A stretch of 64,000 nucleotides of DNA from Mesodorylaimus sp. YZB2_4. Its lineage: Eukaryota > Nematoda > Enoplea > Dorylaimida > Dorylaimidae. A program made the translations under genes and the position numbers. Below, in pieces: positions 601 to 58,703 of the stretch; positions within the stretch are counted from its first letter, which is position 1; the number at the start of each line of letters is the position of its first letter. The stretch lies in contig JASANH010001278.1 in NCBI GenBank assembly GCA_030248295.1, forward strand, positions 1,047,501 through 1,111,500. The letters run 5' to 3'. The notes beneath the pieces were generated by a model that was not told the DNA's origin, made no database searches, and saw nothing but the letters and a program-made list of their open reading frames with translations.

Positions 601-614
601 AAAGTTAACGCACA

Positions 615-1075: not shown

Positions 1076-1079
1076 ACTA

Positions 1080-2073
1080 GCAAGCTCTTTTTGTAATTTT
1101 CCATCTCATTTATGTGGCCAGATCATCAACATTTCCAGAGTCTCTCATTCACCCCATCCTCGTCTTGGGCGGGCACTCCTCACAGTGGCTCGATGATGTG
1201 GCAGACAAATCAGTCAGACATCCGTCTAATTCTAGAAAGCCTACAATTTAAGCAACTTCCTATTAAGGGTCACTTTCGTGGCAGCTACGGGGTACCTACA
1301 GTATGATCGCACGCATCATAGCTGCTGTAGAGCAGAGCTTTCACCTCTGAATTAATGATCCTGACGAATTTCTGAATTTATACACGTATTAGTGCAGCAT
1401 GCACTTTGAAGGTTGAATGATTTTTTGTTAATTTAAAGCTTAAATTTTTTCTCAAAAAACCTATGATTTTTGATGATGTTTTAATTTTACTCGCCAATCT
1501 CTTCACAAACTGAAACAAAGTGCAAAATATTTTCATACGGACTCCCATTAAGTGCGCTACTTTTGCGTTTGTAAGTCGAACGAACGATTTCAGTTTACCG
1601 CACCCATCGCCTGTTTTTTAACTCTGATGCGTAGACAGCCGCGACAGGCGTTTGCTGCAAGCCTTCTATTGCCTCTTCCGACTTCCGTGCTGCTTCGAAC
1701 CGTCAAAAAAAACTGGCATTCCCTACCTTCACTGCCTTAATACCTAAAGATAGCGATAACAATCTTTGCCCATGGTGACCCTAAGTTTTATGATCGTCTG
1801 AATACTTGTGGCCATTTCTGTCAAACAAACTGCTTACTTATTTTAGCTATCAGTATAAACAAGAGTTAGCATTGATTCGACTAACCAAAGTGATAAGGGT
1901 ACTTTGGAAAACTCCAACGCATTTCTCCAGGCACGTACTATCATCTTAAAAAAAGTTTTCTAAGATTACAAACGTCAGTGACAAAAGTTGTTATCTACTA
2001 CATTTGAAACCCTTAAAAAGAGACTAAAACTGTGACCTGAAGAGCCACAACTTTTCTAATCGACCTAGCAAAG
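1080..2073. other. No gene seen
   Basis: AT-rich intergenic sequence between the SINE and the next gene. I could not support any coding region, RNA gene or repeat in it. Confidence 0.4.
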
Positions 2074-2754
2074 ATGAAGACCATATTCGCCCTGTTCTCG
2101 TTGGCGGTGATATGTCAAGGCAAGACCATAATGAATGGAAAACACCTAACATTCGACCGCCACGATAACGAAATGGACTGGCCACTTCCGAATGTGTACA
2201 ATTCTGGCGAGCAGATCATCCACGGACGCCACTGCTACAAGGAAATCCAAGATACGTTCGACGCGAGTGATGACATGAGCCTGATGCATCAAGAGCACTG
2301 CCGGGCCATCATCGAACATATCCTCAACTGGTTGAAAGCCCATCCCAAGTTCAACGTGGACGATCTGATATGCCAAGCCATTACATCCCACGGCGAGCAG
2401 ACGTCGCCCTTCCAGGCACTGCGGGACACGCAACTGGAACCGCAAGTCGATGTCTACAAACGAATCAAGTACGGACGGAAGAAACGATCGGCCATGATGA
2501 ACATGAATGTGGACCCGACCGGCACTCAGAATGCTGTTTATATGGCTTTGGAAGGACGTAATTTGGGCACCGTCCTTCTGAGAAACTACACGTCACCCGA
2601 ATCCTTGAATCCAACCGAGCGTTTCTATGTTGACCAATGGCTGAGCGAGAAATCCATCGCAATGGGAGCAATGGGCGTCTACTGCAGAGTCAATGGCGAC
2701 CTGTCACTTGTGCAAAAAGCTTTGGATAATTCGCCAAAATGGAAGAAAAATTGA
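2074..2754 (+). CDS. Orphan secreted protein with furin-like site
   Basis: A single-exon gene for a 226-residue protein that I do not recognise. The first ~16 residues (MKTIFALFSLAVICQG) form a signal peptide, so the product should enter the secretory pathway. At about residues 134-138 there is a GRKKRS stretch, a typical furin or dibasic processing site that would separate an N-terminal part from a C-terminal part of about 88 residues. Four cysteines outside the signal (three in the N-terminal part, one in a YCRVNG context near the C-terminus) could form disulfides. The start is supported by the signal peptide immediately following it. An AATAAA lies 120 bases after the stop. A processed prohormone or effector is possible; no known domain is visible. 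Confidence 0.7.
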   Translation: MKTIFALFSLAVICQGKTIMNGKHLTFDRHDNEMDWPLPNVYNSGEQIIHGRHCYKEIQDTFDASDDMSLMHQEHCRAIIEHILNWLKAHPKFNVDDLICQAITSHGEQTSPFQALRDTQLEPQVDVYKRIKYGRKKRSAMMNMNVDPTGTQNAVYMALEGRNLGTVLLRNYTSPESLNPTERFYVDQWLSEKSIAMGAMGVYCRVNGDLSLVQKALDNSPKWKKN

Positions 2755-2873
2755 GCAGCGAAATGAATTTTGTGTAGGATCAACCTAGTGCCAGAAAGAT
2801 AATACAGACTGCATCAGACACAAAATCTGGCCTGATAGTTTATATCCTAGGACGCCAGGACACTCATATTTTA

Positions 2874-2879
2874 AATAAA
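2874..2879 (+). terminator. Poly(A) signal AATAAA
   Basis: A canonical AATAAA lies about 120 bases after the stop codon of the orphan secreted gene, on the same strand. Confidence 0.6.
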
Positions 2880-3322
2880 TGGAAGAAAAGAAGCTTTTGG
2901 GTGAATGGTAGGCAATTCTCTGAAGGTGCAAAATGCCGTATAGCTAATTAGTGCTTGTCCCAAGACACCCTTCGACAAAGTTCGATGACGCAAAGACGCA
3001 AGTTGCCACGTGTTCGATGCCTCACACACCAATGCTTACAAAAAACATTTGACGCTGTCTGGAGTCAAACACAAACAATGACAGAAACAAAACACCCCTT
3101 TGGCAGTGATTCGTGGTCACACTTTCGTAAGTACCGCAGCTTTACTGCTAGCGAAACACCACAAATATATGTAGTGTACTTCAACACTCACAAAAAAGCT
3201 AATTCTGTTCCATCTCTGCTGTAGAAGCACTGATTTGTAAAGATATATATAAGCAACGAAAACACAAGGAATCGCACTGAGTACGTATATAAACGATCTG
3301 GTTCCATGGACTCGCAGGGTCA

Positions 3323-3490
3323 CCATGTCATATTATGAGTCATACTTTGTCCTTGGCCAAGCATTATACAGCCCACTCGAGGGACACATATTTGACATTG
3401 ATTTTATACCCAGGCGGGAGTCGAACCCTCCCCTGTCAGTGCGCACCCAACGTGAGAGGCAAACGCCTTGAACGCAAGGCTGCAACCTAG
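3323..3490 (-). repeat. tRNA-derived SINE, family 1 (copy 1)
   Basis: Minus-strand SINE. The plus strand reads GGGAGTCGAACCCTCCC, the complement of a box B, and the tRNA-like head is at the right end. The left end is the 3' tail, here a decayed ATGTCAT-type repeat. The head is diverged (GCCTTGAACGCAAGGCTG where other copies have GCCTTAACCCGCTAGGCC). Related copies lie at 16565, 21792, 22603 and 32507. Confidence 0.75.
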
Positions 3491-4060
3491 CCGAATTTGA
3501 TGCTGTTACTCTCAGAAATAAGACACTAGAACTCACTAAAGCAGCAAAACTTTTTAGTTAGTGACTCTTACTTGTAAATCTGGTACATTTGATATTTTTT
3601 ATATTCACTACAAAAAAAAACAAGGAAACGCCCGCTGCTATACAGTCCTACATGGTTGGCACATATGCAGTGTATGAGAAGCAGCTGGCGAGTCTCTCGC
3701 TCATATGTGGGCTACATGCCACCACCATCATTTAAGCGTGCCCAAGGTCACGCTCGTCTAGCGTGTGCTCTCTTTGTATCACTCTCTGTTGGAGTTGTCG
3801 ATTTATATCGGACTGCTCAATATCATCATCATCACTACTGCACTGCCCATGGAATCATTCGGCTGTGCATGGTTTTTTGTACGACTACTCAATGTGATAA
3901 CGATGAAGGGATGAAGCGAGTGAGGAACGTACTCAAAGCCAAACTGCCTTTGACATTTATTGCGATCAATATGACTATGACCGCGTGAAAAAATTAAGAC
4001 ATCACGCTCAAAGTCATAAAGCAAATAGATCAAGGAAAAAGAATATTTATGATAGCAGGT
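3491..4060. other. No gene seen; candidate minus-strand poly(A) signal
   Basis: No supported gene. A short CAT microsatellite lies near 3822-3840. TTTATT near 3957 reads AATAAA on the minus strand and could serve the GPCR gene ending at 4182. Confidence 0.4.
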
Positions 4061-4072
4061 TTCCCATTTTTT

Positions 4073-4124
4073 GCACAGCAGCACTCCTTCGCAACTAAAA
4101 CGTAGCGAAGGAGTGCTGCTGTGC
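4073..4124. repeat. Perfect 20-bp inverted repeat with 12-nt loop
   Basis: Positions 4073-4092 are perfectly complementary to 4105-4124, around a 12-base loop (AACTAAAACGTA). Pairing continues outward through T and A runs with one interruption. The hairpin lies 58 bases downstream of the GPCR stop, in its likely 3' UTR. It may be a structural RNA element, a microRNA-like precursor or a remnant palindrome. The perfect stem is unlike most microRNAs, which have bulges. Confidence 0.8.
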
Positions 4125-4181
4125 GAAAAAAAGAGACAAAAATGCGACTCATACAGCTTCCACAAAAACAATCTGCCGACT

Positions 4182-5189
4182 CTAAGTATTCGCCTGCGTC
4201 ATGGTAGCTCCATTAGGATTCTCTGTTTTCATCATTTGTCTAACACACTGTCGAAATTGTCGACTTCCAAAAGCGAGCCCTACAATTTCGGCCAGTGATG
4301 CTGAAACCTTCACAACACTCGCGTGATAGAAAAATCGTGGTAAATATGGTCTGAACGCATCCGATGAGGACATTATTGCCACACCGATCTCTGGTGCCGC
4401 GGCAGTGATCATGTAATACGCCATCATCAATTTGACCATGGGCATACAACTCATTTGCTGTTTCATGAACGCCTGACTGCCACTGTCGCTCGTCGAGTTT
4501 GCCAATCGACGACGCCGCCATTCGAATGTCGTCAACATGACTCCATACAAAAGGACGCCTATGGCGGAAAAACATAGGTTATAACTACCATAAAATTTTA
4601 GATAGCTAGGTGTAAATGGACTGAAGAATACTGTGCATGTTACCACGTCACTCAATGCATACCCGGGAGTACCATCACTAAAAAACCCTCCAAAAGCAGC
4701 CAAAGTGGCGTAAGTGTAACAAAATGCTAAACACGAGTAAGCATATCTCTTGCCCAATTGCCTGTATTTCATTGGTTTGAGAATACTTATTAAACGATCG
4801 AGACTAATGAAAGCCGTCACCATCGAACTGGCCTCTATGCCCCACGCCAAGCATAGTGGCTTTGTAAGGAAACATAAATATCGCACACGATCCTCAGGGA
4901 TGATTCTGGTGAACTGCAAAGATTCCTCGATGGCATTCTCAAAAAAACCACCAGCTATAAAAAGTGAGCATATGCATTCGCCGGAAATGAGAAGGAAACA
5001 GGGTGTTTGCAATTCCTTGTATCTTCTCATAACCACGAGGATAAACGTGTTGCCTACCAGGCCAATACCACCAATGATCAGCAGGGCCACAATATTGTAG
5101 ATGACATCGCCCGCTTGAACTTCAGCCGATGGTGGCGATAATGACTCATTCCCATTGACAGACATGGTCTGTTGGCTGTGATTAGACAT
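4182..5189 (-). CDS. Orphan rhodopsin-like GPCR
   Basis: A single-exon gene for a 335-residue seven-helix receptor. I chose the ATG at 5189 because the longer open frame to 5240 begins with GTG. The short extracellular N-terminus has N-glycosylation sites (NHS, NES). Helix 1 contains GLVGNTFILVVMRRYKELQT, the class A GN signature. Helix 3 ends in SLDRLISILKP, where LDRL replaces DRY. Helix 7 lacks a clear NPxxY and reads EIVGLAFGSRQFRQCV. The pattern recalls invertebrate chemoreceptor-like or srsx-like receptors; the ligand cannot be guessed. It is probably a plasma-membrane chemosensory or peptide receptor signalling through G proteins. The hairpin at 4073-4124 lies in the probable 3' UTR. 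Confidence 0.85.
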   Translation of the reverse strand: MSNHSQQTMSVNGNESLSPPSAEVQAGDVIYNIVALLIIGGIGLVGNTFILVVMRRYKELQTPCFLLISGECICSLFIAGGFFENAIEESLQFTRIIPEDRVRYLCFLTKPLCLAWGIEASSMVTAFISLDRLISILKPMKYRQLGKRYAYSCLAFCYTYATLAAFGGFFSDGTPGYALSDVVTCTVFFSPFTPSYLKFYGSYNLCFSAIGVLLYGVMLTTFEWRRRRLANSTSDSGSQAFMKQQMSCMPMVKLMMAYYMITAAAPEIGVAIMSSSDAFRPYLPRFFYHASVVKVSASLAEIVGLAFGSRQFRQCVRQMMKTENPNGATMTQANT

Positions 5190-5240
5190 TCTTAGGACTA
5201 ACACAGCTCGTGGCAGAGGCTTCTGAGGGGGAACGTGCAC

Positions 5241-7799
5241 TTTTCGTGACTAAATAGCACGCATGTCGAAGAAGAACAAAAGGAAACTTCTGCTCAAGGT
5301 TTTGAAGTGATGTGGGTTGAACAATAGGCTATTGTGGGAAGTGATCATTTTCATGAACGTTTTCGTTGTCATGGTCACAACAAGGAACTTGCAAAGATTA
5401 AAATGCTTTTTCTTTTCAACATTCTCAGTTTAAAGAAGCACGAAGAGCTTATTCTATTCGGTCTTGGACAATTAGGTGGAAATGTTGAGCGATTAGGTTA
5501 GATTTTATCATTTAGAAAACGATTCTTGTAAAAGAAAAATTTAACCTCCTTTTTAGTAGATATTTTTGAGAATGAAAACGTGAAAATGTTACTCAAATGA
5601 GAACGGAAGAGAGGACAGTGGAGTCGGTGCACTTTCTTGACCCTGCAGCAAAGCTGCTCTCTCGCTATGCTTTTTCCGCTGCATTGTTAAGGATGTCGGT
5701 ACATCGGCAAACAATGTTGGACGGAAGCATCGAAGGAAGTGCATCCATTTAGGCCGCTTCGCCTGTATGTTCACATTCGCTTAGAAGCAAGAAATAGCAA
5801 TGAGCTGCTTTGTGTCTGCAAGAACCTACTGTCCGGTACGAGTACCAGTGTTAAAAACCCGGGGGGGGAGGGGAAGCGTACGTGATGACGATAACTGCCT
5901 GACATGACTGTTTCCCTTGTGTGAACATCGCTATCAAAGGGCCCTGCAGCTTCTATGTACAAGAATATGGGGCCCACTGACACCAAATGAAACAATATTC
6001 TTTTAGCCCCTTGACCTGAGTAAACATACTGCTTTGCCTTGCAATCCCTTTTATAAACATGTGTTTCATCCTGTACACTAGATTCAAACATCCCCTAAAA
6101 ATATTGTTGTTTTGTGTCGGCTGATTTTATCAAAGAGGAAAGCCAAAAATCCAAAGTTAGAATGTGAAATCACATGCGCTGATAACATAAGATTTTCTCG
6201 CGGCTTTGTTGCCGACGTTAACTGGTCGAGCTCGTGGCCTGGAGGATTGGGCGCGCCTTCCACGCAGCGCAGGGTGTGTAGTTGCGAATGAGTGTTCAAC
6301 TCTTGGTCGGGTAAACACTTGATGTGAACTGTCCCTTCACCCTCGAATGCGCATAAGCAATTGCTAATAAGGTAAAGCAAGAACGCGAATCATTTTGCCC
6401 GCTGAAATCTCTACGATGAGAAATACGCAATGAGGCCTGTCAGACAATGTCAGGCAATGAAATCAGTCATTATCATGGTCATTTCACGATTTACACAATC
6501 ACCATACACAAGCGCACTCGAGGGTGAAGGGATACCTTTTTAAGCAAAATCACTAGCCCGATCGCGAGTCGAACACTCACCCGTAACTGCGCATTTGACG
6601 TTAAAGATGGACTGCCTTGGAGCCCATGAAAGTGCGTTTGATAAGTATCAGCTGCCCTGCTAAATGAGGATTTGGGCTGTAGGGGACTTATGAGCACAAT
6701 GTACGCCATTCCCACGTGTTATTTTACCTCACTTCTCATTTCTACTGTGGGTTCTTGATGACGAAATGAGGCTCATTGTACATGCAGCTCATCCATGCAG
6801 CTTTACAGGTATCCACGCGCCCCATAGATCCATGCCCGTCTAGGATGGATCTACATGGATCCAACATCTTTCATTTGCATCAGTTGGGAAAGATTGAAGA
6901 GAGTATGTGCAACTGCATAGATTTTGTGTGTATCGGCGACAATGTCTGATGAACTGGTGCGGATCTAAAGCTCACCCATTCCTCGCTGACATTCAGTAGT
7001 TTCGCAGTGGGTGCATATTATGAAGGGTGCGATTCCATCAAGGATCCACGTGGAATATTACCAGTGTGCGGATTCCATGTCGACAGTGGGAACCAGGTGT
7101 TTTACAACGCCTATTTTCAGGTGGGAGTCACTGCAGCGCTGCTACTCCTTCACAGCAAAATGAAATGGAGGTTTTGTCCAAAGTTCCTTCAGTACCCTCT
7201 CTGACGGCAGCAACGAAGCCGTTTTCTCAGCGGATGTAATTTTGTACCCTATGAATATTTGGAATTTTGGGCTTTTCTCTTTGATAAGCCGCTGACTCGC
7301 AATAGCCCTTTATCCGTGAAGGCGCAGAAATTGGTAATACGAGTAGAAATAAGAACGCGAAGGCTTGATTTTTCCAGTAAGGAAGAAAAAAAGAAAAAAA
7401 GATGCCCTGCCCGGTTGACAGATAACAGTTTTTCTCCGACAGGTCTAGAAGGCTGAGATAGGGTGGTACGCTCGTATTAGATGTCAGAAAACGAATCACA
7501 TACAGCGGTTATTGGTGATTATTTTGTTGCTTTAAAGTGAATACACCTCAACCCGAAGCTGCCGAGGGAAGGATTCCTCAGTGACCAGTGTCACAAATCT
7601 TTGAGGGCTACGTGCAATCTTGTCTCGGTTTTTTTTTTGTAATCGCTTACGGTTAGTCTGAATTCATGGTATCGGACTTTCATGCAGATATATGGTTTTA
7701 TTCAAGCTCCGAATCCACCATATCCATGGTCACATTGACATTCACAGGCACTCGCGCAAGTCGGTCACCTACATCTCACGATAAGCCTCACTTTGATAA
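5241..7799. other. No gene seen; decayed SINE traces
   Basis: I find no convincing coding exon. Around 6430-6610 there is a diverged family 1 SINE (CGCACTCGAGGGTGAAGG and GCGAGTCGAACACTCACCC on the plus strand), so its orientation is minus. A short C/G homopolymer lies near 5863-5872. A minus-strand AATAAA (TTTATT at 7697-7702) probably belongs to the secreted gene starting at 8219. Confidence 0.45.
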
Positions 7800-8219
7800 T
7801 TAAGCAAGGGTCCCTTGAACCCAACCAAGCACTTTATCCTTTATTTTTTGAAGATTCTCATCAATATTATCTTTCAAGCCGAGAATCTTTGCCTTGGCGC
7901 TTTCGAAAAATGCTTTCACTTCATCTCCAGCATTAGAGAAAAAATCTTTGACATCTTTCCCTGATGTTTCAAGAAATTTCTTTAATTTTTCCTTGGCATT
8001 TTCAACGTTGTCAGCAAAAACGTGGAGTATGCATGACGAAACGTTGGCGATGGCGTTTTCATCATCTTTGTGGTTAAGAACGCAGTTTTTGATACCACCG
8101 GCCGAGAACGCTAGGGTTGCGTTTATAGCTTCAGGGCGATCTTCCTCGGGCAATAACGGACTTGCTGAAAGAAGAGATGCCAGGCATCCGATAAAAATAG
8201 CGACGGTGGTTGCATTCAT
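7800..8219 (-). CDS. Small secreted amphipathic-helix protein (paralogue A)
   Basis: Encodes 139 residues in one exon. I start at the ATG at 8219, directly before a signal peptide (NATTVAIFIGCLASLLSAS), rather than at the upstream in-frame start. The mature part is almost wholly helical with a heptad/undecad rhythm. It has two cysteines about 18 residues apart (KNCVLNHKDD... SSCILHVF), then GKDVKDFFSNAGDEVKAFF, AKAKILG and a C-terminal GWV motif. Paralogues at 11227-11637 and 27999-28487 share the same order: Cys, HKN/HKD, Cys, FFxxAxxEVKxFxExAKAKI, GWV. The character is like an exchangeable apolipoprotein or LEA-like surface-active protein, but I recognise no named family. A TATA-like ACATATATTG (8281-8290, minus) lies about 65 bases upstream. 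Confidence 0.8.
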   Translation of the reverse strand: MNATTVAIFIGCLASLLSASPLLPEEDRPEAINATLAFSAGGIKNCVLNHKDDENAIANVSSCILHVFADNVENAKEKLKKFLETSGKDVKDFFSNAGDEVKAFFESAKAKILGLKDNIDENLQKIKDKVLGWVQGTLA

Positions 8220-8319
8220 GGTGAATGTTTTTATGTAGAAAAAGTTCCTTGCAGCTGAAGGACTTGGTCGCATTTCTGCACAATATATGTAGCTACTCAG
8301 TTCTAGCAAGGCTTTCAAA

Positions 8320-9535
8320 AAGACCGCTGATTCAAAAGAGCTTTTCGAAATCTATTGCAGCTTTTTTCACTGAGATATTATAATTTTTAAGTGGTTTTAT
8401 AAAATCACAGCTTCTGCTCGGTTGTCTGCCACAGTGTGTGAAGTAATTTCTTTGTTAGCAGACTGTGCTCGAAGTGCATACTTTATGCAGCTTTTTTGTT
8501 CACCACTTCAAGCGAAATCGATACAGGTTGAAGTTATAGCCACCAGATGAGCCGAGTGATCTAAGAATTCGAGACAGGCTTCCTGTAAGCTTCGACTCAT
8601 GCAAAACATAGAGACACACTACAGTTTTTGACCCCCACTTTTATGTGCGAGTTAGTTGCACCAATGAGCGGGGAGAGTGACGCAACAGTGCGTTGTTCTG
8701 AAAGCTCGTTTTAACGGAATAATAGAGAAATACGTTTTTCGAAGTTGGCTGGGCGATACTGGGCATTCCTCGCTGAGTTTTTTAATTTAGTCGACTAGCG
8801 ACAAATCAGCTTGCTTGGGAATGAGTGGGGAATCGAGGCTGTATCGAGGACCTGGACTATTTCTCACCCATCTCGAGATATTGGGCGCTAAGGTTGATGG
8901 TAACTAGAAGATAGGGTTGGCACAGCTAGCTTTCTACGTTACCCTCCCCCCCCATCGTCTGTAGTTTTGCTTTACATTTGATATCTACATATGGGAAAAA
9001 CTGTGGACAAGTACGGGATGGTTTCTTACAGAAAAATCCATTTTTGAAAATCTCATAAAACGGATCATGAAACAAGAAATTCATTTTTCGATAGAGTATA
9101 CAAAGTTGCATTGGTCTGCTCCTGTCCGGTTTAAATTCGACTTCTACTTCTAAAAATAGAGAGCAGTATCGCCACAAATTATCCAATTTCTTAACTTTTC
9201 AGACAAACTCTAATTCCAAGGACTGACGCATCCTGAAAAGTAAAAAAGCTATAAAAATGTCTCCGCAATTTCTGGGGTTAGCACGCCAAATAAGACTGAA
9301 AGGTCAGTGAGTTATGGCCTGTGTTGTGTCGCACTTTAAAAGACGGAAAAAAACTTTTTTGGAATACTCCTGAGAAAGTATTTTGCAGAAAAGGCACTGT
9401 TGGGTCACTATGGCCACTCATGAATGCATCAAATTCGCACTTGAGTGGGTGGGAGTAAAAAATTCGACCTTGTGCTTGGCTTCAGTCAGAGTTCAGCACC
9501 CACGGGGGCAGCCAAAGTCATGCTTGTGAGACGTT
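8320..9535. other. No gene seen
   Basis: Intergenic sequence upstream of paralogue A. A C-run lies near 8943-8953. I found nothing else I can support. Confidence 0.4.
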
Positions 9536-46764: not shown

Positions 46765-47000
46765 AAACTTTGCTGGCACTTTTGCTGTTTGGTCCCCAAC
46801 ATGGGTTAGCTTAGGTTGGTATTAGGCTTAGGCTAAGGCTTAGGCTGGCATTTGACTTGGGCTTAAACTGATACTAGGCTTAGGCTTAGGCTTAGGGTTA
46901 GGCTTAGTCTGGTATAAGAATTAAGCTTAGGATGACATTAGCTTCCAGCCAGCCTTATACCAGCCTTCGCCTGGGGACCAAACGGCAAAAGCGCCAAAAA
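46765..47000. mobile_element. MITE with ~30-bp TIRs and TTAGGC-like interior
   Basis: The left end (GGCACTTTTGCTGTTTGGTC then CCC) is the inverted counterpart of the right end (GGGACCAAACGGCAAAAGCG). The 170-base interior holds several TTAGGCTTAGGCTTAGGC tracts. The second half also contains CCAGCCTTATACCAGCC, partly complementary to the first half, so the whole can fold back. Confidence 0.65.
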
Positions 47001-47004
47001 GGTG

Positions 47005-47656
47005 AACTAGAAAACTAAAAAAACCAACTTACTGATTCCAACAGCAACAAAATATGGAGCGCTGATCGAAAATGGCTCAACAGATTTAAAACAAAAATTA
47101 AAATAAAATGTTGTAAAATCGTATTTGTTTATTTGCCTTGTGTTCACCCGACGCTGGCCCTGAAAAAATGAGGTTTAGATTCTGGATATATAGTTATAGT
47201 TACGCGTCCTCCACTGCGCCACGAAATGGAGCTCCACTGCGCCACGAAATGGAGCTCCACTGCGCCACGAAATGGAGCTCCACTGCGCCGCGCTAAATGG
47301 ATGCGCCACCTACCTGGTATTTTTCTAATGTGGGTCTCGTGGGCGTGTATTGTCCAGGCAGGTTTCCCGGCTAGGAGAATGTGCAAATCGGGAGAGGTCT
47401 TGATTCTTTGTTTAGAAAATTATTTTGACGAAATCATAATCGCAAAATTTTGAAAAATTTTGAGGAAATGTACACTGTGCACATGATATGTTGGATTATT
47501 AGCCCGTGGTCGCTGGTTGCTAAAATACCTAGATGTATGATTAGATGCACGGCTTTAGCACTATTTAGGGCAAGCCATTTTGGGATTATGCCGAGAAAAT
47601 ATGTCGAGTCATGCTATGTTCTCGGTTTTTCTGATGTGATTTTTCTTTTTTAGATT
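47005..47656 (+). other. 5' flank of piggyBac gene; 23-bp tandem repeat
   Basis: At about 47205-47290 a 23-bp unit (CCACTGCGCCACGAAATGGA, then GCT) is repeated about 3.5 times. A TTTCTTTTTTAG just before the ATG at 47657 may be the acceptor of a 5' UTR intron. No upstream exon could be identified. Confidence 0.6.
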
Positions 47657-50586
47657 ATGGATAGAAAACAACGGCCCAAAAGGTCTGTTGCGGCGGCGAC
47701 TGTTCTCAACGACATAAGCGCCGGCTCGGACTCATCTTCTGAGGAGAGGGATGAGCCGAATGCAAACGAAAATCTGCAACCGTTCCGTGGTCGACGAGTT
47801 GGACAACCTCCAATTGCCGCGAGTAAACCAGTCGTTGCAACGCCGTCGAAAAAGAAGAGACGTTTGCAGAAAGTTATGTCGGACTCGGGCGACGATTATC
47901 AACCAACACCAACACCGACTCGAAAGAAACCGAAATTGGCTGGTCGGAAACTGGCCGTGTGGAAGGCGAATGCAATATCTTCTACGCCAAAAGGAAAACA
48001 AACGGCGAAAAAAACGACGTCGGCATTTTCTCCAGGCGCGTCTGACTTCTCCGATTTGGAAGACCAGAATGACCGTGATCCGGTAGAACAGGACGGCGAG
48101 GACGATGATTCGTTCCTCGATAGTGACGTGGGCGGCGGAAGCTCCGGAGACGAGTTGGAGAGCTTAGCAGATCTTGGCAGTATCGACAGCGACGGCGATG
48201 TCGATCTCGACGACTTAGCCAATATGGATCCAGAGGATCTATGGGAGAAGATACAGGTAATTAGGTTCTGTGACTCTTATTTTCCTTCTGATCCAAGTAC
48301 GGGCAAGGGGGGCCGTCCCCCTGTTGTCCCGGTCGGGACACTGAACTCACCTTCTCAGTTTTCCCCCTCTCCGCCCCAGGTTCAGCAGCAAGAAAGAAAA
48401 GGAAGGAAGCGATAGCGATCAAATTGTACCTGGGCTGGACCTACTCCCCACCATTTCCCAGCCGACCTTGTCCATGCTTGGTCTGATCTAAGCTTCATGT
48501 AAGAGGGATAAGCCCCTCGTACAGTTTATTGCAAATGCATCTTGGCTGTGTATTTAGAATGGCGAGATGCCTCCACTGCCAGAGTTAGTGGAGCGCAACC
48601 ACATGCCCAAGGAGCCTGCCGGGTATACTGCGACTTTCGAATCGGTTGGGGAAGACGGCAAGAAGACGCTGAAAGATATCGAATGGAGCGTTGGTCCATG
48701 CTCCGATGGCTCCACTCGAGCGTGCGATTTCGGCGATTTGCCAACTTTGTCGAATGATTGGAAGAAGTTGGAAGGCAACGATGATCCAGAAGCGTTCATG
48801 CGGGAAATAATCACGCCCGACATCGTCGAAATGTGAGTGTCATCCTTTTGTTGTGCCTACTTGCAGTTTGACTGTCAGACAGATATAGGAGCAGCGCGCA
48901 GCTCAAAAAACCTGCTTTATACGTGTCCAGTAATTACAAGGCGAGAGAGTCGGACAAAAGTCTACCCCCAGGTTTTTGGTGAAAGGCAGGATTGATTTGT
49001 GAGTGGCTTTTAGTTTTCACGATTATGTCCCTAATCGCGGGGCAACGAAACAAGTACTTCCAAATTTGGCTTGAGTTGTGGCTTCAGTTTACGTTTTGGT
49101 GATGACAAATTTGGCCTATCGTAAATATGCGTCTTGCATTTAGGGTGGTGAAGTATACGAACATATCCGCCGAACACGATTACAACGTGCGTTTCGAAAA
49201 GTTTATGAATGACCCGAACGGGAATGGGCCGGAGCCGAAGAAATGGAAAGCGGTGGATGCCACGGAGATATGGGCTGTAAGAGTGCGAAGATTCAAAAGT
49301 TTCAGTTGTTGAAATCGATTGTGTTATTTTCAGTTTTTCGGAATTTTGATCTACATGGGCGTCGAGCGTCTGGGCAACAAGTCGTCGGCGGATATTTTTG
49401 GACATAACGGACGCACGGCGCATTTGCTCGTTCTGCAGTCATTTACGCGGGACAGGTAAATTATTCAAATTTCTGTCCTGTCCTTAGAGGGTGATTGAAC
49501 AGTGTGGGAGCATTCTGCTTCACTTTTTTGCACCAACCCTGTGGAAATGAGCAGACTGTATTGTGCGATAACGACAACTTTTCACCTAGATTTATGGCCA
49601 TCATGCATTTCATCCGTTTCCACGATCGCGTGGTCGAGCCTGGAAAAGAAGCGCAGCAAAATAAACGAAGAAAAATTCAAGAATTCATCGACCCGATATT
49701 CGCGAATTGTCGGAAGGGCATTATTCCTTCGAACACCATAACTGTCGATGAAAGTTTGCTGTCCTTCAAGGGTCGTGCAGGATTTGTTCAGTATTTGCCG
49801 AACAAGCCGGACAAGTAAGTCATCTTTTGTATGTGCGCACCTCAAAATCTGCAATATATAGATAATCTGCAAAATCTGCTAGCTTACTTTCAAAACTGAA
49901 ACGGTTTTTCTTGCAGATATGGTCTGAAGTTTTTTACGGCGTGCGATGCGCCATCGGGAGCTATGCTCAACGCGATTTTTTATGTCGGTATGGAAGGAGA
50001 ACAGCGCGAAAGTGGTCAAAATACGCGAGTCGTTCTCGACTGTGTCAAACCCTACGCCAAGACTGCACGATGCGTAGTCACTGATCGTTACTATACGTCG
50101 TGTCAACTGATGGACGCGCTGGATCGTATGGGTTTGGACTGCGTTGGAACGACTCAAGCTAGTCGAAAAGGCATACCGAAAGAATTCGCCGCGGTTAGCC
50201 TTCATCCGAAAAATTCGTCGAAGGAGTCGAAAAAGACGAAGAAGTCGAAGACGCGCCAAACGGGAATCGAAAAGACGGTGAATAAAGTGGTGGAAAAAGA
50301 ACAAGCGGCAACAGGTATGGCCGGGTTTCTGCACAGCGAAAAAGCGACTTTGGTGAAATATGAACCAACTGCCAACAAACCTCCCGTGTACCTGATTTCG
50401 ACGCTGCATCACAAGCCGACGGTTGCTGTGAAAGATGGGAAGCCCGAAGCTGTCCTGTATTACAACAGGAAAAAATTTGGCGTCGACTTGCTCGATCAAT
50501 TGGTCAAGTCGTTCTCGACGAAACGAACCTGCCGTCGTTGGCCCATGCGCATATTGCAAATACGCCCATGCCCATGCGCAAAATAG
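47657..50586 (+). CDS. piggyBac-type transposase, intron-bearing, 3'-truncated
   Basis: Exons: 47657-48256, 48558-48832, 49144-49276, 49334-49455, 49590-49814, and 49917 to about 50545 (open to 50586); all GT-AG with matching phases. The N-terminus is basic then acidic (DSSSEERDEP, DGEDDDSFLDSD), as in piggyBac proteins. The DDE core follows: IWAFFGILIYMGVERLGNKS, TVDESLLSFKGRAGF (first Asp), YLPNKPDKYGLKFFTACDAP, CVVTDRYYTSCQLMDAL (second Asp), FGVDLLDQLVKSFSTKRTC then RRWPM (third Asp). The protein breaks right after RRWPM, losing the usual C-terminal helices and zinc finger. Helicase sequence begins there. Five introns with intact frames could mean a domesticated gene or an intron-bearing transposon. 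I see no TTAA-flanked TIRs. Confidence 0.8.
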
Positions 50587-53500
50587 CACTGCAAGATAAT
50601 TTATCGTTGAAAGTCATCATAATGTCGGCGACGATGAACGCGTCTAAATTCATGGTGAGAGTTGCTTCTTTCCAATTTACTTCTTGATCGCGACGATGCG
50701 ACGCTTTCAGGAATTTCTAACCATTCCGTCTCGGCCGCCACCTGTGCATATGCGACTCAATGCACCATCGCCGTTTCCGGTGAGAATTTTTTACGAACCA
50801 TTCATTTGGAAGAAGGCAAAATCTGCTAGTCGTGACCCCGCGGAAGAAGAAGGCCTGACATCTGCACCTGGTCCGTCGGCCGATCTCGGCGCTGCACAAG
50901 CTACGGCCGCACAAGCCACTGCTCCAAAATCGTGTCCCGGCTCGTCGGCTGCGTTTGCAGCAGCCAGCAATATCGTTGACGAAGACTATCAGGATCGTCA
51001 ACAGTTGAAAGTCTCGAAGAAGCTGGACGCCTTCTGTCGGCACGCCGCTACCGTGGCCAACAAAGCAGTCGAGGCCGGAGAAAGAGGAAACATCCTCATA
51101 TTTATGACTGGATTGCAGGTACGCTGACACAACTGATCAAACTATGTGCTTGTAGTGTTGGGCCGCCTAGTATTCCGAGAAGAGGTTCCCAGAGTCCTAA
51201 CTTTGTCCCTGACAACTTTTCACATTCCTTTGCGGTTTCATTTAGGACATCGAAACAACAATCAATTATTTGAAGCGGATGCCTGCAACTTCCAAAGTGC
51301 CGATTTATCCGCTGATCTCGTCCCTGACCAACAAGGAAATCGATCACGCCGTCTATGGTCGAGGGGAGCAAAGACGCATCATTGTCGCTACGAACATCGC
51401 CGAGAGTTCGCTCACCATTAGCGGCATATCACTGGTCATCGATAGCTGCCATATGAAAGTGAAGGTATGAGATGCTCTGCCTGCACCCCAAATATCGGCT
51501 TGCTCGGGTTGGGGACGTTTGAAAGGAAGGGTTTAGTGTCCTGACCGGCCCCACAGGTCAGGAGGGGAGCCCCCTTTTGGCCCCTTGCCCACACTTGCTA
51601 AGCAACAAAAAACTGTGATTTTAGAGTTTCGAAAGTTTCCGCGAGATCGATCGTTTGGATCGTCAGCTCATTAGCAGATCAGCGGCCGCGCAACGCGCTG
51701 GAAGGGCCGGCAGGACGAACGAAGGCCGATGCATTCGGTTGTGCAGCGAAGTCGAGTTCGAGAATCGCGGACCTGGCGCAACATTCCACGACGACAGCAC
51801 GCCGGGAATCCTTCGCGATCGATTGGAGCCAGTATTACTGAAGGTTCTCCTTCTTCGAATGGATTTGGACGGAATGGTTGATGGGGCGGTGACCGCCCAA
51901 CTGAACATGGCCGCGGCGGAGCCGCCGCCGATGGACCTGCCAATCGTCGATCTCGGCTCAGACAATATGGTTTCCGAACCAATAACGTCGTCGGCCGCGG
52001 AAGCATCGGCTTCTGAATTCGGAAAGACAGAAAAGAGCGAGGAGCCCGAAGTGATCGTTTTCAGCGGCCCGCCAACCGTCGTCGCTGCTCCACTTGCGTC
52101 CCAAACGCCTGCGACAGAGCAGGAGTTTCCGTTCGTTGACCCTCCGAGTAAGCTGCATGCAAATACTTTTATTCACGCGCCCACTTTTCCCCTTTTTTGC
52201 AGGTCGGGATCAAGTTGTTTACGCGGCGTCGGTTTTGTTCTGCTTGGATGCCGTGAACATGGACGGAAAGTTGACGGAGATGGGCCTGAAAATGGCTCGT
52301 TCATCGCTCTCGGTGCCGATGGCTCGGTCCTTGTTTGCGGCGCACGAACTGTGGATTGTCGAGGACTTCTTGAAAGTGGCCGCTATGTGCTCAGGTAAGG
52401 TCACCCGAGTTTTTAGATATATTTGCACCCTTTCTCCTTGCACTAGTTTATTTTCGCTGACACTGGTTACTTTTGCAGTGCTCCCAGTAATTCGTCTGCC
52501 ATTCGATCAGGAAGAACGATTCGCAAGGGCTGAGCAGCATCGCGAGCGCTACGCAGACTTCACATCCGACCACATGGTGCTGCTGGACATTTTCGAAAAG
52601 TTCGATTATCACTGTAAGATCGTTTTTTGGTAGACCCCTTCAACCATTGACTAATTCTATTGCTTTGTAGACCAGCGTGACGACATGGAACAAGCCAAAA
52701 CGGTTTGCAAAGAAAGGCAAACAACTTTACTCGTGATGGATCGAGCCGTCAAAGTTTACGATAAACTTTTGTACAAAACGCAGTTCGAGCTGGGGCGTTG
52801 GACGGTGACCTATCATGGCGATCTCGCCGAGGCTGCTAATCGCAATCGATTGCAACCCAACCTTATCAAGGTTCTGGCGAAGGGCAACTTCCTGCAGGTA
52901 ACTTGGCGCTATCGCAATCTTCACCTAGTGCATTCATACTGTTTTCAGGTCGCACACCTGGGTTCGTCTGGGTACCTGCTCGCTCGGAATCGTTTTGTGC
53001 CAGGCGGTTTGCAAGTTCCCTGTAAAGTCTCCATGACTTCGGTTTTGCGCGGGCACACGGAGTATAAAACCGTGATTTTCGAATCGTGCCTGAACCAAGT
53101 GCTCGACGTCGTGTCGATTCTGAAAGTGAACCAGTAAGTTCGTTTCTTTTTGATCTCCCATCCATTTTCTCCGGGTGATAACTAGCGACATCTCCTAACT
53201 TTTCCTCTGTACTTTTGCAGATTGCCAGCGGGTTCGATTACGCGGCGCAATATCGAGGATCGCATGGCCCATGTACGGTATTCGCTTTACTCAGCTGCCC
53301 TTTCCTCAATCGCTTTCCCCTTCGGTTTTTAGAACATCGGTCAAAAGTACAAAAAGCTGCGTTTAGCTCCGATTCCAGAGGGTTGGTCCAGCGGAGACCT
53401 GATGCGGTTGCTAAACGAAGAATATGGCCCCGGTTCTGGCTCGGGACACGATTACGATTTCGTGACCGATTGGAATAGACCATTCGAACAGCGAAGACTA

Positions 53501-54130
53501 ATCACGGGATTGTACCCGACGTTTCATCGCGGGCGCATGACGTCGGTTTTGATGGTGTTGCGCAGCAGCAACTGCGGCCGACTAATTTTGGATTTATTCC
53601 GAACGGGCCATGATGTTGGGGGTAAGTAGTATGGATATAGGGGTTAGGACATTGATTGGGGACCATACAAATAGGACGTGGTGCCCCAAGGGGGGGCGAG
53701 TCTAGTGCACTACGGACAGCTTACGTTGGATGCAGACGGGCCAAGAAGCGGGTTATGAGGTCAAGATGCAGCAGAGATTTGACAAAGCTGACAGAATTCG
53801 AAAAAACAGCATTCCGAGTGACCAAATTTTCTCGAGTGCATTTTACAAGATGCTTAGTAACAAATGTGCTTGTCATAACACCCGAGGAGTACACCGTTTG
53901 CTGCTTCAGGTAAAGGACGACCGGAACATCGCGTCTTTGCCAAATGCGAGGATCAACAGGAAGCCGTTGCGGAAAGGCTGGACGAGGAAGATAAGGAGGT
54001 CGACGACACCGACGTTTGGGAACACGCGGAGGAAGAAGAGGTGGGAGAGGAGGAAGAAGAGGTGGGAGAGGAGGAAGAAGAGGTGGGAGAGGAGGAAGAG
54101 CAGTTCGAAGGTCACGATAGTTGGGAGTGA
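50541..54130 (+). CDS. DEAH-box RNA helicase, 5' part missing at the piggyBac junction
   Basis: Exons: about 50541-50654, then 50711-51118, 51246-51464, 51625-52147, 52203-52394, 52479-52613, 52671-52897, 52949-53133, 53221-53272, 53333-53621 and 53910-54130. All phases agree and no stop interrupts. Motif III is VIIMSATMNASKF, motif V IIVATNIAESSLTISG, motif VI QRAGRAGRT. A winged-helix/ratchet region follows (MDGKLTEMGLKMARSSLSVP), then an OB-like part and an acidic tail with three GEEEEEV repeats. Motifs I, Ia and Ib (ATP binding) are absent, and motif II lies at the breakpoint, where the frame reads LAHAHIANTPMPMRK. As it stands it could not hydrolyse ATP. The flanking exon chain upstream is piggyBac in another frame. 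Confidence 0.75.
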
Positions 54131-54299
54131 TTTTGACGATTTCAGTTGATTTGATTCGATTCCGATCTCGGGTTTTTTGCACTTTGCACTTTGCACTTTT
54201 TCCTTTTTTGGTCATCAGGCACCGTTTTTTTCCCGATCTCGGACGTTTTTTTTCTAACATTTGAAATATAAAAAACTGCACCATTTTTCCTTGCTGGTG

Positions 54300-55235
54300 C
54301 CAAAGTGGTGCCCCAATCCATGTAAGTCCTATCCTCACCACGGGATGCCCCAACCAGTGTAAGTGGTGCCCCAGTCCATGTAAGTCCTATCCTCACCACG
54401 GGCTTGCCCCAACCCTTGTAAGTGGTGCCCCAGTCCATGTAAGTCCTATCCTCACCACGGGCTTGCCCCAACCCTTGTAAGTGGTGCCCCAGTCCATGTA
54501 AGTCCTATCCTCACCACGGGCTTGCCCCAACCCTTGTAAGTGGTGCCCCAGTCCATGTAAGTCCTATCCTCACCACGGGCTTGCCCCAACCCTTGTAAGT
54601 GGTGCCCCAGTCCATGTAAGTCCTATCCTCACCACGGGCTTGCCCCAACCCTTGTAAGTGGTGCCCCAGTCCATGTAAGTCCTATCCTCACCACGGGCTT
54701 GCCCCAACCCTTGTAAGTGGTGCCCCAGTCCATGTAAGTCCTATCCTCACCACGGGCTTGCCCCAACCCTTGTAAGTGGTGCCCCAGTCCATGTAAGTCC
54801 TATCCTCACCACGGGCTTGCCCCAACCAGTGTAAGTGGTGCCCCAATCCATGTACGTCCTATCCTCACCACGGGCTTGCCCCAACCCTTGTAAGTGGTGC
54901 CCCAGTCCATGTAAGTCCTATCCTCACCACGGGCTTGCCCCAACCCATGTACGCGGTGCCCCAATCCATGTACGTCCTATCCAATCCACGTTCGTCCTAT
55001 CCTCACCACGGGCTTGCCCCAACCCTTGTAAGTGGTGCCCCAGTCCATGTAAGTCCTATCCTCACCACGGGCTTGCCCCAACCCTTGTAAGTGGTGCCCC
55101 AGTCCATGTAAGTCCTATCCTCACCACGGGCTTGCCCCAACCCATGTACGCGGTGCCCCAATCCATGTACGTCCTATCCAATCCACGTTCGTCCTATACT
55201 CACCAGGGGCTTGCCCCAATCCATGTAAGTGGTGC
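54300..55235 (+). repeat. 59-bp minisatellite, about 15 copies
   Basis: A regular 59-base unit (containing TTGCCCCAACCCTTGTAAGT, GGTGCCCCAGTCCATGTAAG and CCTATCCTCACCACGGGC) runs with few changes. A larger variant block (CCATGTACGCGGTGCCCC ... CCAATCCACGTTCGTCC) occurs twice near 54950 and 55140. Each unit carries GTAAGT twice. It begins 170 bases after the helicase stop, so it may be in the 3' UTR or downstream. Open frames across it on both strands are incidental. Confidence 0.95.
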
Positions 55236-55789
55236 CCTAAACCAAGTACCGTGCAGCAGCGACACCTGTCGAGGTACGCCTTTAATGGAGAAAAAGGCGT
55301 AATGGCGAAATATAGGCGAAAAGTGGGTCCTAATCAAGAGGGTCTGGAGCCTTCCAGGAACATATTTGAGAGGATTCCTGAAGGATTTCGAGAGATTAAA
55401 TGTTGCGCTATCTCGCTGTGGCATTGGCAACATTATAACCCCACTAATTAGTGTGCTAATTAGCGCCAAAAAGTGGTGCACGGTGCACCATTCCATTCGT
55501 AGTCGAAGTGTTTAATTTCTTCCAAGTGACGATACAGCGTCGCTAAGATGCCTCTGCTGGTAACTTGAGGACTTTTATTGGTTCAGAATTGATTGGGCGA
55601 ATTATTTAAAGAAATTCTGGCACAATTACATATTTAAAAAAGGTTTTTGCTCATGGTTCCAGAAAAAATTTTATCTCCTCTCAGAGCGGGTTTCGAAAGC
55701 GCTTAGCACGTTTTCGCCGCTACTCACAATCAGAGCGCTCTCTCCGCCCTACAGTTCAGTTCTGTCTACCGCTTCATGCAAACACACAG
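55236..55789. other. No gene seen
   Basis: Between the minisatellite and the 3' end of lectin gene 2. No supported feature. Confidence 0.4.
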
Positions 55790-58703
55790 TCACGGCACAT
55801 ATGTGAAGTGCACGCAGTTCGGATCATTCTTGAACACGGTAGCTTCAGGGCTGTTCCATGGAAATAACTCGCAGTTGTGAGTGCATTGATACCAATTGAA
55901 ACTGCGACACCAAATGTAGCTGGAGCATTGATTGGCGCAGTCTTGCAGCGTAGTGCTGTTCAGAGACACTATCACTGCTTCATCCATGCATTTGAATGGC
56001 AAGTGCGAGAATTCTTGCTCTTCGCCTTAACGAAATTCAAACGGTTATTGATTTCTGACAGATTTTTCATAGGAATACAGAGAGCTTACGGTGGATACTG
56101 CAGAGCACAAAAAGATCGCTGTTGCAGTCGTAGTCGCCAAATATGCGTTCTGCAAGTTTCTTCATCATAACACAGCTTTGATTTAATTTAGTATCTCCAT
56201 TAGATTGGTTTCTCAGCAAAGTATTGTTTCCAGCCAGGATCAAATCTCTCTTTGCATTACCGTTGTACCAACGAGTCCGTGGCAGATTTGCTAAACCTTC
56301 CTCATCGCCTCTTGCCGCTACCCACGCTAAGGATTTGCTGTTGAAATCAAAGTATTTCTGAAAGCACTAGGCGTAATGAAGGATAATTAGCGGGGTAAAC
56401 TATCAGCAGGGTCGACATGTTCTAAACTGCTTAGGCTAGACATGGAAACCACAGAGATGGTCAATTTTCAATATGTTTTAGTATGAAGCGTTTATGTCCA
56501 CAATCTTTCCAAAATACATAACGTTATTTTCATGCAACTAAAGAAATAGTGGAATGGAAATTATCCCAACGGAAACAGCTTGTAGTTAAGACTGCAAGAG
56601 AGGAAAACTTAGTAGGCTAAAGCTACAGTATATTACCCGGAGTACACAGATTTTCTGTAAGGCTCGACCTAGGGACGACCACGCGTCGCGTAAAAAACCG
56701 TTTGTTTCCGAAGTGGCAAGCGATATTGCCCTACTGTAACTCACTGCTTTTCGATCAACGACACATCAGCACGTTTGAAAATACATGAGTTCGAGAATCG
56801 AATGTCATTCGCGAAAAGTTTACTGTCCCCCCCCCCCCGCTTTAGACCCCGAACTTCTGACAAACGAGAAGCTCCGCCAAACTTTCCTGCAATTCTGATG
56901 TGCAGCGATATGCAGGACACTCTGATGTATTGCGCGACTGCCGCTATTCACATGCTGCATGAAATATATACTTTTAATTCAAAATCAGTAGCTTTTTTTG
57001 AAAAGTGAACAAGAATAAGGCCGATTCATCCAGGGAATAAGTTTGAATAGCGTCATTTGCAGATGCTCTTCACGTATTTTCAAATGATCCAGCAATCAGC
57101 TAAGCAGAATAGAGCAATCAGCCTAGGTGTAAGGTCCGCTGTTATTGCCAGTAATACTCCATCAAACGCTTTTCGTCTACAAATTCTGTTTCTATAAAAA
57201 TTTCTAATATTGCATTGCGCGCATTTCGAAGTTTTCAAAGATCATTTCATCCTTCAAGTTTAATAATCATCGCAATTCTTATGCAGAGACAGCTTCGAGA
57301 TGCGCAAAAAGTCTTTAATCCCATATTCTGCATTTATTGCTATTCTAATCCAATCGCACTGCAAACTTCTACTAGTATTGGGTGCCCAGATTACCTCCGA
57401 CGTTAAATTTTGTGGTCTGATAAACTGTCTGAAGTCATGCTTCTTTAATAATTGTGAAACAAGATAAGACCTGTTTTAGGACGACCCTATATATCTAAGG
57501 ACAAGGCGCCTCTAGGACAACTATTGTGAAACGTCCTAAATTGGTGTCTCAGCGTTGTCCCAAGTTGTCGTCTAATAGGGCCCCGAATTCGTACTGTGAA
57601 AAATTAGGATCGCACTGCGAAGCTGGCCCCAGCTGAGTGTGGGTCTTGTGCTATTGCAGTTGTCTTACTCGTGCAGTACCCTACCAGCCCAGCTGACGAC
57701 TCTGTGCCAGCGTGGTGTGCGCTTGCGAATGCCATCCATCCGTGGCAAAGCCATCCCTTGTGTATCTCTTCCTATTCGTTCTTATCCAAGCTCGACCGCA
57801 TTGGCGCAAGATATCCTGGCTGTACCAACCACTTCCAGCCTGGTAGAGCGCCTTTTCTCGGATTACGGAGAAAAATAAATAGATTATCGGGCAGACAGTT
57901 GGAACAGGAATTGATGTTATAATAAATGAGATCTATTTTTGATTTTCAGTGGGTGTAAACTTCTCTAGTTTTCTAAAAGCCATGAAAACAGCTTTGCATA
58001 TCATTTTGAGCTTGAAAAAATTTTATTTCTTTGGCTGCCTGTGAAATTTCATGTAATGCCAGGATATTGTCAGCTGTAGTGGAATTTCTCGGTAAAATTG
58101 CAAACACAGAGAAGCTTTGTTTCCGGTGCCGATTATAAGCAACATTTTTTGTTCGAGCATAGTCAAAGTCAGAGCCAGAAAATTTACAGTTCCTTGCTGG
58201 TCAATGGTAAGGTAAGAAAGTTTTTTGAGAGGTCGCTTAAGGTCAGGGTCAGGGTCAGGTCATACAGTGAAAAACCCAGGTCATTGGAACACTAATTCTG
58301 CTATAGGTTGTCTTAAACATTTGCTTTGGCTTACCCCGAAAGAGTTGTAAATTGACAGGGCTTCGTTGTTGGTGTGAACTTGTGCTAGAATGCCACCTGT
58401 GAGCTGACATACATTGAAAGCATCGGCCCAGTTTGACACAGTGAATGGGACCCCGTTCAAGGTCATGGTAGGTTTGCCTGGAACCTGTGCCAAGTAAAAA
58501 CAACGACCACCATTTGCGACGCCGCTATATTTTGTCGTGCACTTGTCGACGAAAGCAGTCTGGGATGGAAAACACTCGTTGCCTGCATGGAAAATCAACG
58601 GTAAATCGGATTTTTAATCTCTAAATCCTCTCTCACCTGTTTGTGCAATAGACAAGCCGAAAAGGGCGACTGTAACGCAGAAGTAAAGGCTCTTTGATAC
58701 CAT
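55790..58703 (-). CDS. Secreted C-type lectin-like + PAN/apple protein (gene 2)
   Basis: Exons on the minus strand: 58703-58637, 58582-58335, 56357-56090 and 56025-55790; intron phases 1, 0, 1 as in genes 1 and 3. The signal peptide is MVSKSLYFCVTVALFGLSIA. The lectin-like domain has VANGGRCFYLAQVPG, WADAFNVCQLTGGILAQV, SLAWVAARGDEEGLANLP and CNSDLFVLC. The PAN domain has FKCMDEAVIVSL, DCANQCSSYIWCRSFNWYQC and CELFPW, ending HFTYVP. It is the closest paralogue of gene 1 and shares WCRSFNWY and CELFPW with it exactly. The final intron is only 64 bases; the second is nearly 2 kb and holds a hAT relic on the opposite strand. It is a probable secreted recognition protein. Confidence 0.85.
57630..57922 (+). 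pseudogene. hAT transposase dimerization-domain fragment
   Basis: The frame encodes DILAVPTTSSLVERLFSDYG, the hallmark C-terminal hAT dimerization motif (usually P-x-T-S-x-x-x-E-R-x-F-S). A one-base frame change in the A run follows, then KINRLSGRQLEQELML and a stop. The N-terminal domains are absent. It lies inside intron 2 of lectin gene 2, on the opposite strand. Confidence 0.65.

What the first reader, a model, noticed from the sequence alone, without database searches (positions are those of the whole stretch)
50500..50660. piggyBac transposase runs into a DEAH helicase exactly at catalytic borders of both
The piggyBac frame is intact through the third catalytic Asp and RRWPM, then stops matching. 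Within a few bases the next frame begins a DEAH helicase at or just after motif II (LAHAHIANT...KVIIMSATM). Both halves are otherwise open through many exons on the same strand. This could be a recent fusion gene, a transposon that deleted the helicase 5' half, or an assembly join. The junction region carries a short repeat (GCCCATGCGCA twice), which could have mediated recombination.
Basis: partly seen in the sequence, partly recalled or inferred. Interest (0 to 1): 0.8.

Follow-up and report, generated by a model that had tools for sequence, protein, structure and literature searches.

The report
Deletion scar in helicase-carrying piggyBac transposon
What looked like a fusion between a jumping-gene enzyme and an RNA helicase is a damaged copy of a nematode transposon that carries both genes side by side; the deletion is ordinary, but a piggyBac transposon with its own DEAH-type helicase gene is unusual.

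Summary
In detail: an intron-bearing piggyBac transposase frame ends at window 50552 and a DEAH-family helicase resumes at 50578, out of frame, across 25 filler bases. It is not a fusion gene, and no host helicase was hit. Both genes belong to one dispersed repeat in what appears to be a nematode genome. Other copies continue the transposase to a cysteine-rich C-terminus; in four of them the helicase start lies 245-247 bases downstream on the same strand. Copies that keep the helicase 5' part have GTGKS and DEVH. The element has short inverted tips, TTAA beside 6 of 11 tips, and 59-bp repeat arrays. Of 17 contigs first read, 8 hold pieces of both genes and none holds both whole. The window joint is one of several private internal deletions; its filler and that of C221 look templated. 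A divergent subfamily keeps the gene order, and 4 of 13 helicase comparisons, the most diverged long ones, show fewer amino-acid changes than neutral simulations. The helicase therefore looks like a long-standing second gene of this piggyBac lineage. Seven literature searches showed no precedent. Its role is unknown; my guess is help with the element's expression or escape from silencing.

The parts
47319..55510 (+). Truncated, internally deleted copy of the two-gene piggyBac element; left end lost at 47319, right terminal inverted repeat kept
   Evidence: Alignment to dispersed copies on other contigs
47657..50552 (+). piggyBac transposase gene, exons 47657-48256, 48558-48832, 49144-49276, 49334-49455, 49590-49814, 49917-50552; native C-terminus deleted, frame now stops at 50586
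   Evidence: GT-AG models, Pfam PF13843, PDB 6x67, divergence point
50553..50577 (+). 25-base filler at the deletion joint, partly like the neighbouring piggyBac sequence (GCCCATGC)
50541..50580 (+). Span holding the two GCCCATGCGCA copies (50541-50551 and 50570-50580)
   Evidence: Read directly from the sequence
50578..54130 (+). 5'-truncated DEAH-family helicase gene: 50578-50654, 50711-51118, 51246-51464, 51625-52147, 52203-52394, 52479-52613, 52671-52897, 52949-53133, 53221-53272, 53333-53621, 53910-54130; motifs III, V and VI and HA2 kept, motifs I, Ia and II lost (motif labels recalled)
54303..55249 (+). 59-bp subterminal tandem repeat array of the element (right side)
   Evidence: Tandem Repeats Finder; arrays on both sides in C399 and C162
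55496..55510 (-). Right terminal inverted repeat tip (CACTTCGACTACGAA on the minus strand)
55512..55515 (.). TTAA next to the right tip
   Evidence: Read directly from the sequence

Best explanation
The junction is the scar of an internal deletion of roughly 1.5 kb inside one copy of a multi-copy nematode piggyBac element that encodes two genes in tandem: an intron-bearing piggyBac transposase and, 245-247 bases downstream on the same strand, a DEAH-family (PRP43/PRP16-like) RNA helicase. The deletion removed the transposase C-terminal cysteine-rich part, the gap between the genes and the first helicase motifs. It was probably sealed by templated end joining after a break or an interrupted gap repair during transposition. 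This copy also lost its left end, so it is a non-autonomous relic. Shown: gene order, termini, copies and deletion points. Inferred: the repair pathway, that the element moved as a unit, and the helicase's role.
For: Transposase copies on other contigs leave the window sequence at the joint and continue into a C-terminus; helicase copies on C1 and C938 leave it at the joint going 5' and continue into DEVH and GTGKS. Of the 17 contigs first read, 8 hold pieces of both genes: C535, C875, C377, C162, C221, C209, C39, C809. The gap from stop to helicase start is 247, 246, 245 and 245 bases in C399, C377, C875 and C535. CACTTCGAC..CGAA tips occur at 11 ends, with TTAA within 6 bases outside at 6 of 11 against 1.05% of window positions. 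C221, C162 and C875 have their own deletion joints, C221 with templated-looking filler. A divergent subfamily on C104 and C823 keeps transposase then helicase on one strand. Helicase amino-acid changes are fewer than neutral in 4 of 13 rows, L035, L039, L040 and L041 (0, 0, 1 and 0 of 1000 simulations at or below observed).
Against: No copy with both genes whole was found in the stretches read, and the transposase and helicase copies used as references (C399, C1) are themselves rearranged, so the complete element is inferred from several copies. Five of 11 tips lack TTAA; only C39 shows it at both ends, one of them at the first bases of the contig. The window joint has no read support here. 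Filler templating is unremarkable when 170-bp flanks and both strands are allowed (912 of 5000) and rare only with 20, 30 or 40-bp same-strand flanks (166, 222, 362 of 20000). Nine of 13 helicase rows show no significant depletion, and noncoding divergence is lower than dS in the diverged pairs, so selection is not well measured. The C46 relative has no helicase in the 3.6 kb fetched downstream.
Confidence: 0.9

Rival explanations
1. Expressed chimeric (fusion) gene of transposase and helicase.
For: Same strand; both sides are open through many exons.
Against: The piggyBac frame stops at 50586 and the helicase lies in another frame. The remnant helicase lacks motifs I and II. None of the 5 other matches covers the joint. 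Splicing around the joint was not modelled.
Confidence: 0.03
2. Assembly artefact joining two copies of a repeat.
For: Multi-copy repeats up to 99% alike invite misjoins; several contigs with this element are short or rearranged.
Against: Twenty-five filler bases partly like neighbouring sequence are not what an assembler makes. C221 has an independent 24-base filler of the same kind, and C162 and C875 joints show microhomology by eye. The window lies inside a 1.17-Mb contig.
Confidence: 0.06
3. A piggyBac transposon inserted into a host helicase gene and deleted its 5' half.
For: Adjacent genes on one strand.
Against: The helicase is itself dispersed with the element. Outside the element family, matches of more than 60 residues in this genome are at most 45% identical; one 43-residue match on C165 reaches 58% and was not examined. 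Gene order is the same at other places.
Confidence: 0.01
4. The helicase is a passenger that hitch-hikes in the element, or was joined by duplication or nested insertion, without a function for the element.
For: No complete two-gene copy was found; recent copies show no constraint; C46 has no helicase in the stretch read.
Against: Conserved order and gap length, the same order in a divergent subfamily, common termini, and depleted amino-acid changes in four diverged helicase copies.
Confidence: 0.15

Closest known systems
piggyBac superfamily DNA transposons
   Same: DDE_Tnp_1_7 transposase with the DDD residues, short inverted tips beginning CAC, TTAA beside 6 of 11 tips, cysteine-rich C-terminus in C399
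   Different: Second gene (DEAH helicase), five introns in the transposase, 59-bp subterminal arrays. [quoted passage not shown]
Teratorn (piggyBac fused to a fish herpesvirus)
   Same: A piggyBac-type element that carries extra genes (PMC6431247, passages seen)
   Different: Here one eukaryote-type intron-bearing helicase; no viral gene among the frames scanned; the C162 copy is about 10 kb
DEAH/RHA helicases PRP43/DHX15 and PRP16/DHX38
   Same: Motifs I, II, III, V and VI and HA2; best PDB matches ddx-15 (8ro1) at 3.7e-35 for the window part and PRP16 (5lj5) at 4.1e-20 for the C1 5' part
   Different: DEVH in place of DEAH, a long insert before HA2, no Pfam OB-fold match, acidic repeat tail, carried by a transposon
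Helitrons (Rep-helicase transposons)
   Same: A eukaryotic transposon that encodes a helicase (PMC6431247, passages seen)
   Different: Helitron helicase is joined to Rep for rolling-circle transposition; here the helicase is a separate DEAH gene beside a cut-and-paste transposase

Membership tests
piggyBac superfamily | DDE_Tnp_1_7 catalytic domain with the three Asp positions | tested here: met
   Pfam 1.3e-55; alignment to 6x67 through TVDE, VTDR and GVDLLDQ (which Asp are catalytic is recalled)
piggyBac superfamily | C-terminal cysteine-rich domain | tested here: met
   Seen by eye in the C399 copy; lost in the window copy
piggyBac superfamily | Short terminal inverted repeats | tested here: met
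   CACTTCGAC..CGAA at 11 ends, left and right; the C191 right end is altered
piggyBac superfamily | TTAA target site duplication | tested here: inconclusive
   TTAA within 6 bases at 6 of 11 tips; both sides only in C39; C162 has it on the left only, C1 on neither side
DEAH/RHA RNA helicases | Walker A, DExH, SAT and QRxGRxGR motifs | tested here: met
   GTGKS, DEVH and SAT in C1; SAT and QRAGRAGR in the window; labels recalled
DEAH/RHA RNA helicases | HA2 domain | tested here: met
   HA2_C 27 bits, above its cut-off of 21.3; HA2_N 20.8 bits, just below its cut-off of 21
DEAH/RHA RNA helicases | C-terminal OB fold (OB_NTP_bind) | tested here: inconclusive
   No Pfam match at E 0.01; a diverged fold is not excluded, as the ddx-15 alignment runs to the region before it
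Teratorn-like piggyBac-virus hybrids | Herpesvirus gene set | tested here: inconclusive
   No viral family among 7 proteins scanned, and viral-contig scans with one piece of each gene found no relatives; not all frames of the element were scanned

The most novel reading that the evidence does not exclude
This piggyBac lineage is a dicistronic, nematode-operon-style transposon. Its second cistron, a DEAH helicase released by trans-splicing at the AG that lies 23 bases before its start, is a selected accessory of mobility that helps splice or translate the intron-rich transposase RNA, or counters small-RNA silencing.
Probability: 0.25. Interest if true: 0.75.

Novelty: new variant of a known kind. 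Interest (0 to 1): 0.5.

Why it matters
Cut-and-paste transposons of the piggyBac type are generally described as one-gene elements. A lineage that kept an RNA helicase gene through subfamily divergence would show that such elements can acquire and maintain accessory functions. It would also give a testable case of a transposon handling its own RNA or host silencing. The window joint itself matters less: it is a well-preserved deletion scar.

Tried and rejected
Fusion gene: rejected on frame and because the joint was seen only in the window copy (counts of repeats there are lower bounds). Host helicase hit by an insertion: rejected because the helicase disperses with the element. Virus origin: viral-contig scans with the C1 helicase 5' part and the C399 transposase C-terminus found no relatives. 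Rfam (gathering thresholds) and ARAGORN scans of the window were empty. A guess that the frame at 58284-58613 is a C-type lectin got no Pfam match. Simple dN/dS was replaced by codon simulations, because noncoding divergence was lower than dS in the diverged pairs. The filler test with wide flanks was unremarkable, with narrow flanks positive; both are reported. The gap length was first measured with an offset slip (244-246) and measured again (245-247). Literature, judged from listings only apart from the papers named: searches (10 papers listed of 10; 3 of 3; 14 listed of 15; 20 listed of 494; 0; 0; 10 listed of 26) showed no piggyBac element with a DEAH helicase; subscription papers and Repbase are not covered.
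Full report
What is there. The window is part of a 145-Mb genome in 1067 contigs. I take it for a nematode from 133 matches to the cuticle-collagen N-terminal domain, a family that I recall as typical of nematodes; the species is not known to me. At 47657-50552 lies a piggyBac transposase gene in six exons with GT-AG introns (Pfam; best solved match 6x67, 2.1e-39). At 50578-54130 lies a DEAH-family helicase gene, open for 842 residues over 11 exons, with Helicase_C and HA2 matches and PRP43/DHX15-type relatives. Between them are 25 bases that belong to neither. The frames do not join, and the piggyBac frame stops at 50586.

What the joint is. Searches of the genome returned 10 places for the transposase piece 49900-50540 and 6 for the piece 50541-51120 (the tool calls such counts lower bounds). 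Of the 6, only the window itself covers the joint. Transposase copies on C399, C191 (two), C535, C875 and C377, and the more distant C46, continue past the joint; in C399 the last exon ends in a cysteine-rich stretch. Helicase copies on C1 and C938 continue upstream into DEVH and GTGKS. The lost stretch is about 1.5 kb by comparison with C399 (685 bases of transposase and 247 of gap) and C1 (593 bases of helicase). C399 and C1 are rearranged elsewhere.

The element. I fetched 20 regions from 17 contigs; a weak match on C500 and other small ones were not fetched. Eight of the 17 (C535, C875, C377, C162, C221, C209, C39, C809) hold pieces of both genes by tblastn; C809 holds short fragments. C399 holds transposase and, after it, the helicase start only. 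The other eight show one gene. In C399, C377, C875 and C535 the helicase start lies 247, 246, 245 and 245 bases after the transposase stop; in C377 the start codon reads ATT and the helicase frame carries stops. None of the stretches read holds both genes whole. The C162 copy spans 108011-117970 between its tips. Tips CACTTCGAC..CGAA were found at 11 ends; TTAA lies within six bases outside at 6 of 11, against 1.05% of positions in the window. C39 has TTAA at both ends, one of them at the first bases of the contig; C162 has it on the left only and C1 on neither side. The window copy keeps its right tip at 55510 with TTAA at 55512-55515, and departs from the other copies at 47319 on the left. 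The left part of the element was not found elsewhere in the window.

How the deletion arose. The window filler shares the 8-mer GCCCATGC with the last 20 bases before the break; 166 of 20000 random window stretches do as well or better, 222 with 30-base and 362 with 40-base flanks. The C221 filler shares a 9-mer (67, 98 and 132 of 20000). With 170-bp flanks and both strands the window value is unremarkable (912 of 5000). C162 and C875 joints show microhomology by eye, untested. In C. elegans germ cells the error-prone part of transposon-break repair is attributed to polymerase-theta end joining, and 24% of the deletions studied carried templated inserts; most such breaks are thought to be repaired without error (PMC4490562, passages seen). 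I infer the same route here; it is not shown.

Is the helicase a real gene of the element? Three lines say yes. First, order and spacing are conserved. Second, a divergent subfamily on C104 and C823 (95.8-97% alike over their two long blocks) has the same order on one strand: in C104 transposase pieces at 46-66% protein identity, then helicase pieces at 32% (E 5.6e-4), 40% (E 3.4e-12) and 36% (E 0.03); in C823 one transposase piece at 63% and a helicase piece at 40% (E 5.9e-12). Third, against simulations that place the same base changes at random, four diverged helicase copies have fewer amino-acid changes: L035 100 observed, 126.6 expected; L039 56, 70.4; L040 59, 72.1; L041 58, 73.1; at most 1 of 1000 simulations as low. 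Stops are also fewer in L035, L039 and L040 (1, 0 and 0 observed; 6.5, 5.3 and 5.0 expected; 13, 0 and 6 of 1000 simulations), not clearly in L041 (1 against 3.9; 86 of 1000).

Results that do not help. The other nine of 13 helicase rows (L026, L027, L030, L033, L034, L036, L037, L038, L042) show no significant depletion (74 to 812 of 1000); they are young or short comparisons. Of ten transposase rows only C46 is extreme (0 of 1000), C377 and C809 are modest (18 and 41), and the rest are not significant. Rows with under 40 codons or under 15 changes were dropped by the script. Noncoding divergence is lower than dS in the diverged pairs, probably because only alignable introns enter, so I do not lean on dN/dS. 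Outside the element family, helicase matches longer than 60 residues in this genome are at most 45% identical; one 43-residue match on C165 reaches 58% and was not examined. So I see no sign of recent capture from a gene still in this assembly, but I built no tree.

Mechanism. The likely working form is a two-gene transposon whose transposase cuts and pastes at TTAA. The helicase start is preceded at 23 bases by a T-rich run ending in AG in C399, C377, C875 and C535, and the transposase ATG by a similar AG at three bases. In a nematode this suggests trans-splicing of an operon; that is inference from recalled nematode biology. The helicase may assist expression of the element or counter silencing. 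No step of this role is shown.

Known and new. The piggyBac features are met except that a TTAA duplication is only partly seen. A 2023 survey states that the piggyBac transposons it detected in small animal genomes contain single ORFs (PMC10813416, passages seen). Seven literature searches, judged from listings, showed no piggyBac element with a DEAH helicase; two of them list only part of their hits, and the library is open-access only. I rate the window joint ordinary and the element a new variant of a known kind.

Noticed in passing
L029 (G000:C46:246500-256499), 756-6381: piggyBac relative with about 65% protein identity in its conserved parts, no stops in the aligned codons and strong codon constraint (122 amino-acid changes against 218.7 expected); no helicase match in the 3.6 kb fetched downstream. 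Possibly a domesticated transposase.
   Followed up: partly
window 46767-47003: 32-nt inverted repeat arms (84% complementary) around TTAGGC-like repeats resembling the nematode telomere unit (recalled); looks like a small non-autonomous element.
   Followed up: partly
window 47209-47293: Tandem 23-bp units with partly self-complementary sequence lie just left of the point where the element copy breaks off at 47319.
   Followed up: no
L034 (G000:C938:5662-15661), 613-3103 and 6988-9483: Large inverted repeats (96%) with frames of unknown family beside the helicase 5' part; similar sequence lies next to the C1 copy. May be another element inserted into this one.
   Followed up: partly
window 54028-54099: Perfect 21-bp repeats in the last helicase exon encode an acidic GEEEEEV tail.
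   Followed up: no
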